The position numbers were made by a program, and so were the translations under genes. DNA of 64,000 bases from Hyphomicrobiales bacterium (lineage in GTDB: Bacteria; Pseudomonadota; Alphaproteobacteria; Rhizobiales; Beijerinckiaceae): NCBI GenBank assembly GCA_028290285.1, contig JAQGKD010000099.1:1-64000 (forward strand), in the 5' to 3' direction. How positions within the stretch are numbered: position 1 is the first letter of the stretch; every line of letters begins with the position of its first letter. The notes below the pieces were generated by a model. It was not told the origin of the DNA and ran no database searches. It was given only the letters and a program-made list of their open reading frames with translations. Shown here piece after piece: positions 2,906-9,362 of this stretch.

Positions 2906-3946
2906 TCAGGACACACGTTCGATCAGCCACTCGAACAGGCCGGCCGTGTTCACCTTGGTTGCGAGATCACGGTTGGCCCAGACGTGAATACGGCTGTCGT
3001 CGGGCCCGATCAGGCCGGTCGCCGGCGAATGGCAGATGAAGAACATGCGGTCGAGGCCCGAGGCCTCGAAGCGGGCGATGTAGTCGTCGAGGACCGCCTG
3101 GGTCGCACGCGACTTCACCTGCACAAACGCCCGCTCCCCGGTCGCGGGCTGCGCGACCACGAGATCGACGTCCGGCATCGATCCCCCGAGGGTAGAAATG
3201 CGGCTCCAGCCCATATGTCCGAGCATCAGGTCAGCCAGAAGTTCGAACTCGCGTTCGTGCAGGCGGGGAATCATGTCCTCGGCCGCCGACACAAGCTCGT
3301 GTAAAGCCTGACGGCCCCTGAACGCGCTGGGCTCATCCATGTCATTGATCCGGCGCAGGAGGTAATCGACCTCCTCGATCTTGCAGATGGTCTTCTGATA
3401 CGCCGCGACCTTCGACAATCTGGTGCTCAGGAGGTCCGTTCGCAGTGGCGCGCCCATCCGGCTCTCGTGGCTCCAGCCCAGGGTCGCCCGAATGACCGCA
3501 CCGTGGTCGCCTGGAGTCCCGCGCAGGTCCGTGACCCCGCCGTGTGACAGTGTCCACCAGAGCGAGCCTCCGGAGAACGTCACCCAAAGGGTGTCGTCCG
3601 GTAGCTCGTAGAAATCGCGCATCTCGCGCAAGGCATCGCTCGCCGGTCCTGGGGAGCGCCCGAGCACCTCGATCATGTAGCGCCGGGCGCCGTCCCACTC
3701 TCCTGCCAGGCAAAGATCGTGCGGCTCGCCGACGTCGCCAAAGTGCAGCTCGCCGCGCTCGAAACATTGTCGTGCCCATTTCCCGCCCGTCCCGAGCTTG
3801 ATGTAGCGGACATGCGCGGGCGCGACGGGAGGCGCGGGAATATGAGCATTCAACTCGGGCAGGGCGGGTTCACCGATCATCGCGGGTATTCCTTCCGTCA
3901 ACGTTTCCATAGCCTGGACATCGCTCTGGAGGGACTCGGCAGTCAA
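2906..3946 (-). CDS. Mrr-like PD-(D/E)XK restriction endonuclease with N-terminal reader-like domain
   Basis: This is a 346-residue protein. The C-terminal part (about 225-346) fits a restriction-endonuclease fold: a leading helix EREFELLADLMLGHMGWSRI, then PDVDLVV (D259/D261) followed by AFVQVKSR with Q276-x-K278, which gives the D...QxK active-site pattern of Mrr-type enzymes. Residues about 45-160 (YIKLGTGGKWARQCF and later VTFSGGSLWW) resemble the PUA/EVE-like domains that recognise modified bases in modification-dependent nucleases; that assignment is weaker. Start is uncertain: TTG 3946 or ATG 3913. It is convergent with the XRE gene. It could cut foreign modified DNA, or pair with the methyltransferase at 1-1198, though the two are 1.7 kb apart and separated by other genes. 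Confidence 0.7.
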   Translation of the reverse strand: MTAESLQSDVQAMETLTEGIPAMIGEPALPELNAHIPAPPVAPAHVRYIKLGTGGKWARQCFERGELHFGDVGEPHDLCLAGEWDGARRYMIEVLGRSPGPASDALREMRDFYELPDDTLWVTFSGGSLWWTLSHGGVTDLRGTPGDHGAVIRATLGWSHESRMGAPLRTDLLSTRLSKVAAYQKTICKIEEVDYLLRRINDMDEPSAFRGRQALHELVSAAEDMIPRLHEREFELLADLMLGHMGWSRISTLGGSMPDVDLVVAQPATGERAFVQVKSRATQAVLDDYIARFEASGLDRMFFICHSPATGLIGPDDSRIHVWANRDLATKVNTAGLFEWLIERVS

Positions 3947-4319
3947 GGGAAATGTGACTTATAGGATGCGGCTGCGGGCGCGTTAATCTGTAGTCCAATG
4001 CACGCATTTCGCGTTCAAGCGTGGTCAGCACATGCGAGCGGAAAAGTCCGTCGGAGGAGGCCGAGAGGTTGCTTTTGATGCAAAAGCTACATGAGTCGAC
4101 CTACGTCGGCTTTGCGCCAAAACCAGACATTGAGGCACCGCCCGTAAGCTGACTTGCTGCAATGCAAGGCTGACGAGCAGCCTCCGCCGCGCTAACGAGT
4201 CCCAAGTTCCGGCCGTCTGTGGCTGCGTTCGAATGCCTGACCAATAGGCATTTCGACTTCTACGCGTTACAATTGATTCGCTAAACTAAAAGCGATGCAC
4301 CGGGCGGGGGATTTGGACG
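3947..4319. other. Divergent intergenic region before the DUF3010-kinase operon
   Basis: The stretch lies between the start of the leftward nuclease gene and the rightward four-gene operon, so it should hold both promoters. The right half, including the stretch near 4255-4295 just before the operon, is clearly more AT-rich than the flanks. A short perfect hairpin (GCTTTTG, loop ATG, CAAAAGC) lies at 4071-4087. No open frame here looks coding. Confidence 0.4.
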
Positions 4320-4742
4320 ATGGTCGTTTGCGGCGTTGAGCTTCGCAGTAGCGAGGCTCGCCTTGTGCTTGTGATTGTGAAAGATGGCGAACCAGTCCAT
4401 GTTCGGAGCAAGACTAAGGTTTTGAAGCTTGGTGATGACACTTCCAACGATTCCATCGCGACTTTCCTTCAAGCGGTGAAAACGTTCGCACATGAGAACG
4501 GAGTCGAGGCGTTTGCAATCAAAGCACGCGCCAAAACCGGGCAAATGGCCGGGGGCGGCATAACCTTCAAAATGGAAGCGATCATCCAGTTGTCCGGGGT
4601 CGATGTGACGCTAGTCAACCCGGTCGCTCTATCGAAATTCTCGAAGAAGAACGTTGCAGGAATTCCCAGCACGATCAATGGCGTTGACCAAAACGCCTAT
4701 CTTTCGGCTGTCTTCGACCTTAATCGCAGGAAGCTCTTGTGA
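4320..4742 (+). CDS. DUF3010 family protein, first gene of candidate defence operon
   Basis: This is a 140-residue soluble protein. The opening MVVCGVELRSSEARLVLV, the central KARAKTGQMAGGGITFKMEAIIQL and the late hydrophobic strand match the DUF3010 family as I know it from gamma- and alphaproteobacteria. The repeated beta-strand pattern with acidic residues is reminiscent of RuvC/RNase H-like folds, but I cannot confirm catalytic residues, so nuclease activity is conjecture. Its TGA overlaps the ATG of the kinase gene by one base (TGATG), a classic sign of translational coupling. Base composition is visibly less GC-rich than the surrounding chromosome, in line with horizontal acquisition. 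Family call is fairly good; function is unknown. Confidence 0.72.
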   Translation: MVVCGVELRSSEARLVLVIVKDGEPVHVRSKTKVLKLGDDTSNDSIATFLQAVKTFAHENGVEAFAIKARAKTGQMAGGGITFKMEAIIQLSGVDVTLVNPVALSKFSKKNVAGIPSTINGVDQNAYLSAVFDLNRRKLL

Positions 4743-5815
4743 TGGCAGTCGACCTAAGTGTCCTAAAAGGCGACGTTCTCAAAAAAGCTGAAGAGCTGTC
4801 TAAAGACATCGAATTCCGGTCGATCAGTGAAAAGGGCGCGAACGGGTACGTGCTTTTCGGCCACAACAAAATTCTTAAGCGTGATGTGGTTGTCAAGTTC
4901 TATTATTGGGGAGCCGGCGATCATGCAGAGCCCGAACTTCTAGCTCGGTTGGACTCTGATCACATCTTGAAGGTTTATCACGCTGAACGTTTGAACAAGG
5001 ATGATGCCTACTTCATAACCCCTTATTGCGCTTCTGGCGATTTGCTCGACGCCATTGAGAAACGCAGGTTCGGGAATGTTGAGGCGATCGACATTGCGGG
5101 GCAGATCGCCGCCGGCACGAGCTTTTTGCACGCGAACGGCTATCTTCATCGCGATCTGAAGCCGGAAAACATTTTCTGCATATCAGATTCGAAGTTCGTC
5201 ATCGGCGATTTCGGATCAGTGGTGCCTCAGCATGCCGATGGGTCGACCAACTCTCAAACACGGCACTCCCTCATCTACCGAACGCCGGAAGAGATCACCG
5301 AGAAGAAATATTACAGGCAAGGCGACGTGTATCAGTTGGGAATCGTCTTATACCAACTTCTCGGCGGCGTCCTGTCCTACAATGAGCGGGATTGGCTCAC
5401 TAAAACCGAACAGGCAATCTATGACAAGCTGAGCGGAATTGATCCGCAGCTTTTCGCGACAGAGGCCATAGAAAAGCGCATCGTGAAGGGACGTGTCCTT
5501 GAACTCGATAGCCTTCCTCCTTGGGTTTGCAAACCGTTGCGAACGATGATCCGGAAATGCTGCTCAACCACTATCGCCGCGCGATACCCGCTCGTGTCAG
5601 ACCTCAGTTCCGCAATGAATAACGTGCGCGGAAGAGTTCCTGACTGGCGAGTGGAGGAGCACCCCATCTTGCGGCGGGGCCGGAGGCAGTTCCGCATTGT
5701 GCCCGCCAAGGACGCTTTGGTCATAGAAAAGAAGACGGGAGAAAGCTGGCGCAGAGAGCGAGCTCTCAATCCAGCGAACCTAGCTGAGGCCGTAGTCATG
5801 GCTGAGGCGATCTGA
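4742..5815 (+). CDS. Hanks-type serine/threonine protein kinase
   Basis: This is a 357-residue cytoplasmic kinase. The glycine loop is GANGYV at 32-37, the ATP lysine K52 lies in VVVKFY, and the helix-C glutamate is probably E63 or E65 in HAEPELL. The catalytic loop HRDLKPEN at 136-143 and the metal-binding DFG at 156-158 are intact, and the activation segment ends in YRTPEE, an APE variant. All catalytic residues are present, so the enzyme should be active. There is no transmembrane segment or PASTA repeat; after the kinase fold (ends near 300) comes a short basic region and a small beta-rich tail that I cannot assign. It is translationally coupled to DUF3010 upstream, and the dioxygenase gene begins about 40 bases downstream. 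Kinases of this compact type occur in phage-defence systems as signal transducers; that role here is inference. Confidence 0.9.
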   Translation: MAVDLSVLKGDVLKKAEELSKDIEFRSISEKGANGYVLFGHNKILKRDVVVKFYYWGAGDHAEPELLARLDSDHILKVYHAERLNKDDAYFITPYCASGDLLDAIEKRRFGNVEAIDIAGQIAAGTSFLHANGYLHRDLKPENIFCISDSKFVIGDFGSVVPQHADGSTNSQTRHSLIYRTPEEITEKKYYRQGDVYQLGIVLYQLLGGVLSYNERDWLTKTEQAIYDKLSGIDPQLFATEAIEKRIVKGRVLELDSLPPWVCKPLRTMIRKCCSTTIAARYPLVSDLSSAMNNVRGRVPDWRVEEHPILRRGRRQFRIVPAKDALVIEKKTGESWRRERALNPANLAEAVVMAEAI

Positions 5816-5853
5816 CCCAACCATTGGAGCTTCCGTGGCTACGAAATGGTACG

Positions 5854-6582
5854 ATGTCAATTCTTGTTAGCGCGAGCAACCTCCGGGATTTACCGAAGCA
5901 GTCGTTTGGGCGTATTTGGCTCTCGGTCAGAGAGGTCGTTGATCGCGACGGCTGTATATTCATTGAGGGCTATGAGCCTGAACGGCCGTCCGCCGAAGTA
6001 GCGCCGACGTTCGGAAAAATACTGTCAGTCTGGGGCGACAACGATCCAGTCCAGGAGCTCGTTCCGATCAACCAGAACGACGCAGCTCCTAACACCTACA
6101 GTGGCATTTTCGGCCGTGATCGCTTCCCATTCCACACCGACCTGGCGCACTGGCGAGATCCTCCGCGATATCTGATGCTCAGATGCGTCAAGGGCTATTC
6201 GGACATCCCGACGCCCGTGATCGACGGGCGTGACCTGGTTAAGGCTATCGGGCCCGATCTACTCAATCGCGCGCTGGTGAAGCCGAGGCGCCCTTGCGAT
6301 GGGCGCTTCAGAATACTGAGACTTCGCGAACCCGCGGGAGAACGGCTGGGGCTGATCCGGTGGGATGAGGTCTATCTCAAGCCGGTTAGCAATCTGGGCG
6401 AGTTGGCGATCTCTCGAATGAAAGCAGAGATCGCCAAGCGCAGGGCGATCGATAGGACACTTGCCAAGCCTGGCGACACCATGATCATCGACAACTGGCG
6501 GATGCTGCATGCCCGTGCTCCGGTACCGGCCGGGCTCAAAGACCGGATAATCGAACGGACTTACCTGGGGGAGTTGAATTGA
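5854..6582 (+). CDS. TauD/TfdA-like Fe(II)/2-oxoglutarate dioxygenase
   Basis: This is a 242-residue protein of the clavaminate synthase/TauD superfamily. The iron facial triad is visible as HTD in FPFHTDLAHW and the distal histidine in DNWRMLHAR; arginine in the following DRIIERTYL is a candidate 2-oxoglutarate ligand. Such enzymes hydroxylate small molecules or carrier-bound amino acids; no DNA-binding feature is seen. I chose ATG 5854; an in-frame TTG at 5824 would add ten residues. The stop overlaps the TTG start of the next gene (ATTGA), so the two are coupled. A TauD-like oxygenase between a kinase and a HEPN-like protein is unusual. Family is well supported; substrate is unknown. Confidence 0.8.
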   Translation: MSILVSASNLRDLPKQSFGRIWLSVREVVDRDGCIFIEGYEPERPSAEVAPTFGKILSVWGDNDPVQELVPINQNDAAPNTYSGIFGRDRFPFHTDLAHWRDPPRYLMLRCVKGYSDIPTPVIDGRDLVKAIGPDLLNRALVKPRRPCDGRFRILRLREPAGERLGLIRWDEVYLKPVSNLGELAISRMKAEIAKRRAIDRTLAKPGDTMIIDNWRMLHARAPVPAGLKDRIIERTYLGELN

Positions 6583-7535
6583 AGACGACAGTAGCGCCTG
6601 GCTCGATTGACCAAAATTGGAACGCAGAAGACCTCTACAACAAGGCACTACTTTACGTTCAACAGACTGCGGATCTGGAAAGCGACAAGTGGCAGTATGC
6701 GCTCTGGCTGAGCCTGGCGCTGGAGTTTCTCGCGCGCGCTGCTCTCGCGAACGTCAGTCCCGCGTTGCTCGCAGAAGTCAAAAATGACCAATGGGGCAGC
6801 CTCTATCACTCCCTTGGCTTTGCCCCAAAGGAGACGAGGTACGTCCCAAGGTCGATCGGTATCGCGGATGTGTTCAAGCGCTTGAACATGATCTTCGATG
6901 ACTTCACGCAAGAGCACGAGAATTTCGGGATCCTGCACACGGGCAACCGGAATACCGAGCTTCATACCGGAATTATGGCGTTCGAGGGCGTCAGCGCTCT
7001 GTCATGGCAACCAAGATTCTACGAAAGTTGCCAGATTCTCCTATCGTCAATGGGGAAATCGCTCGAAGACCTCTTTGGCGAAGAGGAAGCAAAAGCCGCC
7101 GTAAAACTCATCGCGGTGGCCAAGGACAAGGGCGCCAAGGCAGTCCAAGGGGACGTCTCCACGCACAAAAAGGTTTGGCAGGCTAAGTCTGAGGCCGACC
7201 AAAAGTCGCTGGCTGACTCCGCAGCGGTATGGGCCACTCGTCATATGGGACATCGCGTCCAATGCCCATCTTGTGGATCCCGATCGCTACTCTACGGTGA
7301 GCCGGTTGGTGATCCGAAGCAGCAATTTCTGGATGGCGAGATCATCGAAACACAAGAATATCTGCCGGCGCATTTTGAGTGCGTAGCCTGCGGACTGAAG
7401 ATTTCGGGTCTATCGAGACTGAATGAGGTCAAGCTCGGCGACCGATATAAGAAGACAGAGAGGTACAACGCGGCCAACCTTTATGCGCCGGAAGACGAAT
7501 ACGACGGCTACGAGGACGACAACAACGAGCGCTAG
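6579..7535 (+). CDS. HEPN-like protein with C-terminal zinc ribbon
   Basis: This is a 318-residue protein starting at TTG 6579, overlapping the dioxygenase stop. The N-terminal ~150 residues are helical (for example YALWLSLALEFLARAALA) and end in GNRNTELHTG: R124-N-x3-H129 is the Rx4H motif, with the favoured polar residue after arginine, of HEPN ribonucleases. A four-cysteine zinc ribbon follows: CPSC at 229-232 and CVAC at 268-271. The C-terminus is strongly acidic (EDEYDGYEDDNNER). HEPN proteins often act as RNA-cleaving toxins or defence effectors, and DUF4145-like relatives combine HEPN with zinc ribbons. The HEPN call rests on one short motif plus helix pattern, so it is moderate. It is the last gene of the operon and abuts the broken retron gene. 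Confidence 0.62.
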   Translation: MKTTVAPGSIDQNWNAEDLYNKALLYVQQTADLESDKWQYALWLSLALEFLARAALANVSPALLAEVKNDQWGSLYHSLGFAPKETRYVPRSIGIADVFKRLNMIFDDFTQEHENFGILHTGNRNTELHTGIMAFEGVSALSWQPRFYESCQILLSSMGKSLEDLFGEEEAKAAVKLIAVAKDKGAKAVQGDVSTHKKVWQAKSEADQKSLADSAAVWATRHMGHRVQCPSCGSRSLLYGEPVGDPKQQFLDGEIIETQEYLPAHFECVACGLKISGLSRLNEVKLGDRYKKTERYNAANLYAPEDEYDGYEDDNNER

Positions 7536-7585
7536 ACGCTGGTATTCTCCTGCTCCTAAACCAACGGCCTCGCCCAGACCCAATC

Positions 7586-9007
7586 TTGGCCGACCAGCTT
7601 TACCGCCCGCGGCAGCCCGTCCATGGCTTCGTGCCCAAGCGCTCGGTTAAGAGCAATGCCGAAGCTCACCGTCGCCGCCGCTTCATCGTCAACCTGGATC
7701 TCCAGGACTTTTTCCCGGGGATCACGGAGAGACGGGTCGCCGGGCTACTTCGCGCGTTGGGCATCGACCGACGCGTATCGGAGATCGTCGCCTTTCTTTG
7801 CTGCCATATGGGCCGGCTTCCGCAGGGCGCGCCCACCAGCCCGGTTCTGTCGAACATGATCTGCTATCGCCTGGACACCGACCTCCTGCTGGTCGCCAAG
7901 TCGGGCCGCGCGATCTACACGCGCTATGCAGACGACATCACCTTCTCCAGCTATCAGCCCCCGACAAAACTGTTCGACGTCGCCGTCCCAGGAGCCGGTC
8001 GGTTCTCGCCCGACGTGTTGGCGCCTCAGCTGCGCGCAGCGATCACGAGCAATGGCTTCGTGGTCAACTCCGACAAGGCCCACTACACCTAGCGCAACTC
8101 GCGACGGATGGTGACGGGCGTCAAGATCAACGCCGGCCTCAACGTCGACCGCCGCTACATCAGGCGCATCCTGGCGATGCTGCACTCTATCGAGAAGCTT
8201 GGCCTTGCCGATGCGCAGACCAGACACGATTCCAGCGGCGGCAAGGGCGCGCTCGCCGCCCATCTGCGGGGGAAGATCGCCTATGTCGCGCATCTCAAGG
8301 GCCAGACCGATCCCGTCGTGCGCTCGTTGGCCCAGCGCTACAACAAGAGCTTTCTCTCCAAGCCGATCAAGCTCGCCCCGAGGGCCGCCGAGCGGCGCGA
8401 CCGCGCGGTCTGGGTCGTCGAGGTTCCCGAGAAGCACAACGGCACGGCCTTTTTCCTCGCGGGCGTCGGCCTAGTGACCGCGGCGCACTGCATCGAAGGC
8501 ATGAGCGAGGTCGACGTCCTCCATCCGTCGAAACATACGACAATCTTCAAGGTGAAGGTCCGGCATTACGACAGGCATCGGGATGTGGCGGTGCTCGACG
8601 ATGCGAATATCCCTTCGACCGAGTTTTATGAGCTCCAACCCGCCGCGAATGCGGCCGCGGTCACCGATGCTATCATGGCCGTCGGTTACCCGATGTGGGG
8701 GTTCGGCGAACGCCTCAACATCCGACCTGGCGAGGTCAGCCTCCTAACAGTCCGATCCGGCGTCCTGTTGATCGAGGTCACCCAGCAGCTGACGCCGGGC
8801 ATGTCTGGCGGGCCCATCCTGAACGCCGAGGGCGAGGTTGTCGGGATCGTCCACAAGGGCGGCCCCGAAGGGGGGCGCCAGCTCGCGATCAGATTAAGTG
8901 AGCTCAAGGCGTCCCTGAAAGAGGCGGCAAAAAAGGGCCGGATCAAAGTCGGGGCATGGGCCCGGCAGCAGAGCCGCCAGCCAACGGTCTTGCCGGGGGC
9001 AGATTAG
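7586..9007 (+). pseudogene. Decayed retron reverse transcriptase fused to trypsin-like protease
   Basis: One reading frame encodes a retron-type reverse transcriptase followed by a serine protease. Retron hallmarks are present: NAEAH (the NAxxH of region X), QGAPTSP, the catalytic YADD, and VTG just after the break. An amber TAG at 8090-8092 interrupts the frame where relatives have glutamine, so one C-to-T change of CAG explains it; the frame is otherwise open to 9007. The first ~100 residues expected of a retron enzyme are missing, because homology begins directly behind the HEPN gene. The protease part, counted from ATG 8108, keeps a full triad: H127 (TAAHC), D159 (HRDV) and S233 (GMSGGP). 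Retron enzymes with protease domains are known; this copy lacks a recognisable msr-msd. The protease half could still be made from ATG 8108. Confidence 0.8.
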
Positions 9008-9167
9008 AAGTGCATCTCCTCGCGGGGTGCCGAGCCGTGAAGGTCCTTCGCGGGAAGCTTGCGACATACTCCAAGGAGAACTAGCTTAACAGTCGTCAAG
9101 TCGACCTTGAACCAATGCCTGCCCCTTAAGCATGTGAAGGAAATTACCGCATCAATTCCGTTCCACA

Positions 9168-9362
9168 CTGTCAGCCGCGCAGTTCGCGACCGCCTTCGCT
9201 CTGAGGCCTAATCTGGTTGCGTGGTTCCTAGGCGCGGGCGCATCGGCGGCCGCCGGGATTCCGACCGGTTACGCGGTGATACGGGATTTCAAGGCGCAGA
9301 TCTTCTGCCGCGAGACCAAGCTGTCGAAGCGAGAGATCGATACCGTCGATGCCGTAGGGTGA
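9168..9362 (+). pseudogene. N-terminal stub of a SIR2-like gene
   Basis: The frame reads LSAAQFATAFALRPNLVAWF, then LGAGASAAAGIPTGY and RDFKAQIFCRETKLS before a stop at 9360-9362. The GAGAS box with the following AAGIPTGY is the NAD-binding start of SIR2-like domains found in many antiphage proteins, where such proteins run several hundred residues. Only about 60 remain, with no clear start codon, so this is debris. After it, 9363-9599 holds no recognisable gene. With the broken retron it suggests repeated turnover of defence genes at this locus. Confidence 0.6.

What the first reader, a model, noticed from the sequence alone, without database searches (positions are those of the whole stretch)
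4320..7535. Uncharacterised four-gene operon: DUF3010, Ser/Thr kinase, TauD-like dioxygenase, HEPN-like zinc-ribbon protein
Four genes in one direction, mostly touching or overlapping (TGATG, ATTGA), sit in a defence island and are visibly less GC-rich than their surroundings. Kinases and HEPN ribonucleases are known in antiphage systems, but the addition of an oxygenase of the TauD type and a DUF3010 protein is a combination I do not recognise. It could be a kinase-triggered RNA-cleaving abortive system with an oxygenase-made signal or modification. My not recognising it is not evidence of novelty; a search must show that.
Basis: partly seen in the sequence, partly recalled or inferred. Interest (0 to 1): 0.88.

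Follow-up and report, generated by a model that had tools for sequence, protein, structure and literature searches.

The report
Dioxygenase–HEPN ribonuclease gene pair
What looked like one four-gene operon is two separate gene pairs side by side, and one of them, an iron-dependent oxygenase found next to a likely RNA-cutting toxin wherever it could be checked, looks like an undescribed bacterial toxin or phage-defence module that may be switched by protein hydroxylation.

Summary
The four genes exist as described (4320-7535; DUF3010, Ser/Thr kinase, TauD, HEPN+zinc ribbon), but they are not one conserved system. TauD lies directly upstream of the HEPN gene in 35 of 35 loci with readable upstream DNA, in Alpha- and Gammaproteobacteria and Streptomyces; DUF3010 and the kinase accompany it in 1 of 35, the window. 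DNA similarity to the nearest relative (Bosea) covers just the two ORFs (5923-7538). DUF3010+kinase is another pair, in 5 other loci without TauD-HEPN.

The HEPN call is supported by fold (16 of the top 20 rows are HEPN or HEPN-type toxin entries, 4 untitled) and by RNxxLH in 32 of 33 proteins. TauD keeps its iron ligands in 32 of 32. HEPN ends in a predicted-disordered tail with a conserved Asn-Asp/Glu (21 of 23 dereplicated). DUF3010 is RuvC-like.

Best reading: a HEPN ribonuclease toxin/effector gated by its dioxygenase, possibly by hydroxylation, carried on plasmids and near unrelated defence systems. PADLOC has no model for it, and my literature searches (listings partly capped) found no description. 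The pair is well supported; its chemistry, and whether TauD silences or activates, is inference.

The parts
4320..4742 (+). DUF3010 gene, RuvC-like (RNase H-like) protein, 140 aa; first gene of module A
4739..5815 (+). Ser/Thr protein kinase gene (GTG 4739 or ATG 4742); second gene of module A
   Evidence: Pfam Pkinase 2e-30; HRD and DFG motifs in the sequence; best PADLOC profile mad6 3e-35, then PD-T4-6
5854..6582 (+). TauD/TfdA-type 2OG-Fe(II) dioxygenase gene (ORF open from 5824; the Bosea relative aligns from 5923); first gene of module B
   Evidence: Pfam TauD 1.8e-13; profile hit to clavaminate synthase 6e-15; HxD at 6133-6141 and distal His at 6508-6510; iron ligands kept in 32 of 32 proteins
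6579..7535 (+). HEPN + zinc-ribbon protein gene, 318 aa (TTG start overlapping the TauD stop by 4 bases); second gene of module B
6948..6965 (+). RNTELH: the HEPN RX4H catalytic motif (residues 124-129)
   Evidence: R, N, L, H invariant in A3, 23 rows; RNxxLH in 32 of 33 proteins
7263..7391 (+). zinc ribbon CPxC...CxxC (residues 229-271)
   Evidence: 33 of 33 proteins
7488..7532 (+). conserved acidic C-terminal tail ending ...YEDDNNER, predicted disordered (residues 304-318)
   Evidence: pLDDT below 50; N[DE] in the last 6 residues in 31 of 33 proteins, 21 of 23 dereplicated; shuffled mean 3.6, maximum 10 of 23 in 2000 shuffles
5923..7538 (+). extent of the cassette: the only stretch of window 3901-9300 alike in DNA to the Bosea relative L003 (77.4% over 1616 columns)
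   Evidence: single blastn HSP at E<=1e-3, from codon 4 of the Bosea TauD to 3 bases past the HEPN stop

Best explanation
The stretch holds two independent two-gene modules that happen to lie head to tail. Module B (TauD-HEPN, 5854-7535) is the conserved unit. HEPN is a ribonuclease toxin or effector that cuts RNA through its RNxxLH site. The small clavaminate-synthase-like 2OG-Fe(II) dioxygenase, translated just before it from an overlapping frame, controls it enzymatically, most likely by hydroxylating the HEPN protein itself; the conserved Asn in the disordered C-terminal tail is the leading candidate site. The pair would act as a toxin-antitoxin / abortive-infection module carried on plasmids and beside unrelated defence systems: loss of the oxygenase, or of oxygen, iron or 2OG, or a phage trigger would free the RNase. 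Module A (DUF3010-kinase) pairs a RuvC-like protein with a Ser/Thr kinase, perhaps a nucleic-acid sensor and an effector of its own. Shown: the two units, their families, predicted folds of HEPN and DUF3010, kept catalytic motifs, gene coupling, purifying selection on module B (window against Bosea), spread. Inferred: RNase activity, the direction of control (off rather than on), the hydroxylated residue, the trigger, and all of module A's function.
For: Coupling: TauD directly upstream of HEPN in 35 of 35 loci with readable upstream DNA (window, L003-L016, L034-L037, L076-L080, L083-L093); one gene or the other is broken in L087, L089 and L092. In the two genome samples alone, 9 of 9 genomes with readable flanks, own included; a tenth, G077, has a decayed HEPN at a contig end. 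The genes overlap by exactly 4 bases in 19 of 29 loci measured. Unit boundary. Co-variation: TauD and HEPN pairwise distances correlate at r=0.90, 0 of 2000 permutations as high, 23 dereplicated pairs. Selection, window against Bosea: dN/dS about 0.12 (TauD) and 0.08 (HEPN, dS 1.6, near saturation); L083/L015 0.22 and 0.05; L004/L012 0.10 and 0.06. Catalysis kept. HEPN fold. Tail; kept in Streptomyces (ends EPEYGND) at about 27% overall identity to the window protein. Context: plasmid copies near VapBC or rep/par genes (L089, L090, L086); others beside Gabija GajA (1.5e-286), Mokosh MkoA, PDC-S68, Tmn, class I pAgo, TrlF/Ppl. In L087 HEPN is truncated and in L086 it has Gln for the catalytic Arg, each beside an open TauD frame.
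Confidence: 0.46

Rival explanations
1. The dioxygenase is an activator: infection (or an upstream ATPase, helicase or kinase) triggers it to hydroxylate and so switch on a silent pro-RNase, as nuclease-protease pairs do in other defence systems.
For: The pair sits beside many unrelated defence genes and can follow an upstream gene closely: PDC-S68 in L034 (adjoining), TrlF in L015 (9 bases) and the kinase in the window (38 bases). Precedent in principle: PMC12799240 (abstract and opening read). L092 (TauD interrupted, HEPN intact) fits an activator better than an antitoxin.
Against: HEPN broken or catalytically altered beside an open TauD frame in two loci (L086, L087) fits an antitoxin slightly better. 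Copies on plasmids near VapBC or rep/par genes look like addiction modules. No constant sensor gene was seen.
Confidence: 0.26
2. TauD acts on RNA, a nucleotide or a small molecule rather than on HEPN: it marks self RNA for protection, or phage/host RNA for cleavage by HEPN.
For: Strict pairing and a zinc ribbon on HEPN could mean a shared nucleic-acid substrate; most profile relatives of TauD act on small molecules.
Against: The relatives listed (clavaminate synthase, Asn/Arg/Lys hydroxylases) are not titled as RNA enzymes; the conserved disordered HEPN tail points to a protein-level interaction.
Confidence: 0.16
3. The four genes are one kinase-triggered, RNA-cleaving abortive-infection system, as first proposed.
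For: In the window the genes are co-directional and closely spaced (38 bases between kinase and TauD), with lower GC throughout.
Against: 0 of 34 other TauD-HEPN loci have DUF3010 or the kinase, and 0 of 5 other DUF3010-kinase loci have TauD-HEPN; DNA homology to Bosea stops at the TauD start.
Confidence: 0.04
4. Ordinary metabolism: TauD for sulfur or amino-acid use with an accessory protein.
For: The TauD/TfdA name; one plasmid copy (L090) lies near sulfite-exporter genes.
Against: The constant partner is a HEPN protein with a kept RNase motif; neighbours otherwise vary; distribution is patchy (6 of 385 and 7 of 398 genomes, own included).
Confidence: 0.03

Closest known systems
HEPN-MNT (HepT-MntA) type VII toxin-antitoxin systems
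   Different: Partner is a TauD dioxygenase, not a nucleotidyltransferase; the acceptor Tyr of RX4HXY is absent in 33 of 33 (motif and acceptor Tyr from passages of PMC11586414); extra zinc ribbon and C-terminal tail.
Nuclease-protease pairs of Hachiman, AVAST, Lamassu and DRT (PMC12799240)
   Same: An enzyme-plus-nuclease pair found beside several unrelated defence systems; possible enzymatic gating of a nuclease.
   Different: No protease and no MBL nuclease; here an oxygenase and a HEPN protein, also found without an obvious defence neighbour; gating untested. Only abstract and opening of the paper were read.
AbiV (HEPN RNase of a two-component antiphage system, Lactococcus; PDB 9bj6)
   Different: Weak structural match; the table of PMC3710099 marks AbiV 'No' in what appears to be the motif column and mentions an alternative His (passage).
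RuvC / Tex / YqgF branch of the RNase H-like superfamily (for DUF3010)
   Same: DUF3010 is placed there by PMC3985635 (passages); fold match here.
   Different: Joined to a kinase gene in 6 loci (window included); in the 30 best-scoring of the 40 DUF3010 hits of the phylum sample no such kinase lies within 1.5 kb.
MADS kinase MAD6 and PD-T4-6 kinases
   Same: Closest defence profiles to the kinase (3e-35, 5e-25).
   Different: NCBIfam MAD6 score 64 against a cut-off of 460; none of the eight scanned window proteins matched another MADS model among the hits shown.

Membership tests
HEPN superfamily | HEPN helical bundle | tested here: met
   AlphaFold2 mean pLDDT 85; top 20 VIA rows: 12 titled HEPN, 4 HEPN-type toxin-antitoxin entries by title or recall, 4 of unknown function. 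Foldseek alone gave no E below 0.001, best 0.16, MntA-HpeT
HEPN superfamily | RX4-6H RNase motif with a polar residue after R | tested here: met
   RNxxLH in 32 of 33 proteins; window RNTELH
HEPN superfamily | ribonuclease activity | not testable with these tools
   needs an RNA cleavage assay
Type VII HEPN-MNT toxin-antitoxin | acceptor Tyr two residues after the motif His (RX4HXY) | tested here: not met
   0 of 33 have Tyr there
Type VII HEPN-MNT toxin-antitoxin | minimal nucleotidyltransferase partner | tested here: not met
   the partner is Pfam TauD in the window and a homologue of it in the other loci
Type VII toxin-antitoxin in general (enzymatic antitoxin) | toxicity of one partner relieved by enzymatic modification by the other | not testable with these tools
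   needs co-expression and mass spectrometry
TauD/TfdA 2OG-Fe(II) dioxygenases | family profile and Fe(II)/2OG ligands H-x-D/E ... H ... R | tested here: met
   51.5 bits against cut-off 27; H-x-D/E (E in four related copies) and DNxxxLHxR in 32 of 32
A defence system named in PADLOC-DB 2.0.0 | match of TauD and HEPN to a model | tested here: not met
   no hit up to E 1 for TauD or DUF3010; HEPN only 0.045 to a cyclase model
   0 of 34 other TauD-HEPN loci and 0 of 5 other DUF3010-kinase loci
RNase H-like superfamily, RuvC branch (DUF3010) | RuvC-like fold | tested here: met
Nuclease-protease-type recurrent pairs | trypsin- or caspase-like protease partner | tested here: not met
   the partner is TauD; the trypsin-like domain at 8108-9007 belongs to a broken retron XI

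The most novel reading that the evidence does not exclude
A bacterial toxin-antitoxin / abortive-infection system in which a 2OG-Fe(II) dioxygenase silences a HEPN ribonuclease by hydroxylating an asparagine in a conserved C-terminal tag, so that immunity or plasmid addiction is wired to oxygen, iron and 2-oxoglutarate: a bacterial counterpart of oxygen-sensing hydroxylation, spread from Proteobacteria to Streptomyces.
Probability: 0.2. Interest if true: 0.87.

Novelty: new variant of a known kind. Interest (0 to 1): 0.62.

Why it matters
HEPN ribonucleases are a central toxin fold of bacterial immunity, and the enzymatic antitoxin described for them attaches nucleotides (PMC11586414, passages). 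A strictly coupled dioxygenase would add a new control chemistry and would tie a defence or addiction switch to the cell's oxygen, iron and central carbon state. The unit is small, bounded, widespread and easily tested in E. coli K-12. Correcting the four-gene reading also prevents experiments on a false system.

Tried and rejected
Four-gene system: rejected by co-occurrence. DUF3010 as part of module B: rejected. In the phylum sample DUF3010 was found in 40 of 398 genomes, 39 over the cut-off. The 30 best-scoring of these have no match to any of the seven window proteins tried other than DUF3010 within about 1.5 kb (L065 is only 2141 bases, and its DUF3010 showed only); of the other ten, the own genome, G415 and G584 have the kinase, G325 (below cut-off) has not, and six were not looked at. 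Sequence search of HEPN against the PDB gave nothing usable (best E 0.014, AlbE homolog), so a fold search was needed. With the window HEPN there was no match in 50,697 phage records; with the Pseudomonas copy none in the E. coli genomes at DNA level; one relative in viral contigs. Promoter and terminator scan: no excess over shuffles. Repeats around the operon: only short two-copy pairs. Defence neighbours: of 29 hand-picked neighbours of pair loci, 10 matched PADLOC at 1e-5 (one, L078:2104-5988, is a TRCF-type helicase by Pfam, and counts for nothing), 19 did not; the latter include all sampled neighbours of L003, L007, L010, L012, L035, L036, L037, L079 and L084. Of 11 neighbours of DUF3010-kinase loci, 4 matched (restriction enzymes in L082, IetAS in L031); none in L030, L040, L081. 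The case/control comparison dropped L035, whose control stretch did not exist, proteins under 100 or over 1500 aa and ORFs at stretch ends; its gene calls come from a home-made codon model and the control stretches were picked by me. I first took L089 as a HEPN-only break; a check showed an in-frame stop in its TauD too, so it was removed from that argument, and the odds of the antitoxin reading were lowered slightly (0.50 to 0.46, activator 0.22 to 0.26, novel case 0.22 to 0.20). Literature: nine searches ran. 'TauD'+'antiphage' 0 papers, 'dioxygenase'+'HEPN'+'anti-phage' 0, 'HEPN'+'hydroxylation'+'antitoxin' 0, 'HEPN'+'2-oxoglutarate'+'toxin' 2 (listing only, seemingly unrelated). Searches listed only the top 20 of 39, 20 of 702, 10 of 53 and 8 of 51 papers. 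The held main text of PMC3710099 has no 'oxygenase' or 'TauD'. Subscription papers and preprint servers are largely not covered.
Full report
Observation. The four ORFs are real and placed as stated. Families: DUF3010 (1e-31), protein kinase (2e-30), TauD (1.8e-13); the fourth gene has no Pfam family above cut-off. GC is 52-59% in 4001-8000, against 64-65% in the kilobase on either side. The TauD start is probably ATG 5854: the ORF is open from 5824, but relatives align only from about 5923. Downstream (7586-9007) lies a type XI retron RT-protease in two pieces, lacking about 70 N-terminal residues and split by a stop (model positions about 70-231 and 236-505). Upstream (2906-3946, minus strand) is a weak Mrr-like gene (22.3 bits, cut-off 21).

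The conserved unit is TauD-HEPN. HEPN relatives were collected from genome contigs (8 loci), plasmids, two samples of whole genomes (6 of 385 class genomes and 7 of 398 phylum genomes, own genome included and three genomes shared) and viral contigs (1). TauD lies directly upstream of HEPN in 35 of 35 loci with readable upstream DNA; in L087, L089 and L092 one or both genes are broken. One more locus, L038, has a decayed HEPN gene at a contig end and cannot be judged. The 35 include near-copies; at under 80% HEPN identity there are 23 pairs with both frames open. The two genes overlap by 4 bases in 19 of 29 measured pairs; the rest range from -16 to +10. Named hosts are Alpha- and Gammaproteobacteria, Streptomyces (L091) and a record labelled Roseateles but flagged unverified (L090). 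Pairwise distances in the two proteins correlate at r=0.90 (0 of 2000 permutations), though shared descent contributes.

DUF3010 and kinase do not belong to it. tblastn with the window proteins and divergent representatives found neither in the 34 other TauD-HEPN loci. Most DUF3010 genes lack the kinase: 30 of 30 checked in the phylum sample (the 30 best-scoring of 40 hits), and L032, L033, L039. The family is mostly gammaproteobacterial according to PMC3985635 (passages). DNA similarity between the window (3901-9300) and its closest TauD-HEPN relative (Bosea, L003) is one block, 5923-7538, 77.4% over 1616 columns: from codon 4 of the Bosea TauD to 3 bases past the HEPN stop. Between window and Bosea, dN/dS is about 0.12 for TauD and 0.08 for HEPN; two other comparisons give 0.05-0.22, but the decaying pair L086/L092 gives about 0.3 and 0.5. 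For module A no dS could be computed (saturated).

The tail. HEPN ends in a low-confidence acidic segment (pLDDT below 50), yet its last residues stay alike while the residues before them vary: YEDDNNER, FEEDFNE, YEPDYGND, EPEYGND. N[DE] occurs in the last six residues in 21 of 23 dereplicated proteins; shuffling the last 20 residues gives a mean of 3.6 and a maximum of 10. It looks like a short linear motif kept by selection. With an amino-acid-hydroxylase-like partner, hydroxylation of that Asn is an attractive but untested idea.

Context. Neighbours include Gabija GajA, McrBC and a SAVED/HNH-like protein (L011), Tmn, and by annotation AbiV and AbiH (L013), Mokosh MkoA (L016, L085; MkoC-like in L077), TrlF/Ppl (L015, and by annotation L083, L088, L093, L085), PDC-S68 and BrxA (L034) and class I pAgo (L080). 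Others lie on plasmids near rep/par or VapBC genes (L086, L089, L090). In L007 and L012 a further gene of 152-156 aa (79% identical to each other, no family found) sits 12 and 3 bases upstream of TauD. Of 29 hand-picked neighbours, 10 matched PADLOC at 1e-5 and 19 did not. A small case/control scan at 1e-20 gave 23 models matched among 80 neighbours of seven pair loci (several models per protein) and 6 among 101 control proteins; the control hits were mad3 (2), RtcR-type, PDC-M72A and ankyrin: suggestive, not decisive.

Natural breakage. HEPN is truncated in L087 and has Arg-to-Gln in L086, each beside an open TauD frame; in L089 both genes are interrupted; in L092 TauD is interrupted near its start while HEPN looks intact. 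This does not settle antitoxin against activator.

Verdict. The finding is worth keeping, but redrawn: a compact TauD-HEPN pair, absent from PADLOC-DB 2.0.0 and not found in the literature searches made (three of them with zero papers, others with capped listings), next to an unrelated DUF3010-kinase pair. Mechanism: HEPN RNase gated by its dioxygenase (antitoxin reading about 0.46, activator about 0.26).

Noticed in passing
window 7586-9007 (+): Broken type XI retron RT-protease: about 70 N-terminal residues missing and the frame split by a stop near 8090; directly downstream of HEPN.
   Followed up: partly
window 2906-4122; L029: Mrr-like gene on the minus strand; the DNA upstream of it recurs in the same genome (C105, 88% over about 143 bases) beside what by eye reads as a shortened copy of the gene.
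   Followed up: partly
L031:9584-10000: On Cupriavidus necator H16 pHG1 the DUF3010 partner of a kinase is apparently interrupted by an in-frame stop; IetA- and IetS-like genes follow.
   Followed up: partly
L012:10871-11329 and L007:7837-8307: Family-less 152-156 aa gene, 79% identical between Shinella and a Hyphomicrobium MAG, 3 and 12 bases upstream of TauD: possible third component in some lineages.
   Followed up: partly
L086 and L092: Two Bradyrhizobium plasmids carry near-identical pairs, one with the HEPN catalytic Arg replaced by Gln, the other with an interrupted TauD: a natural comparison.
   Followed up: partly
L015, L083, L088, L093, L085: TrlF/Ppl AAA-like ATPase beside TauD-HEPN in two different arrangements (upstream in four related plasmids, downstream in Pseudomonas), which may mean a functional link.
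   Followed up: partly
L089, L090, L086: The pair sits near plasmid rep/par or VapBC genes, like an addiction module.
   Followed up: no
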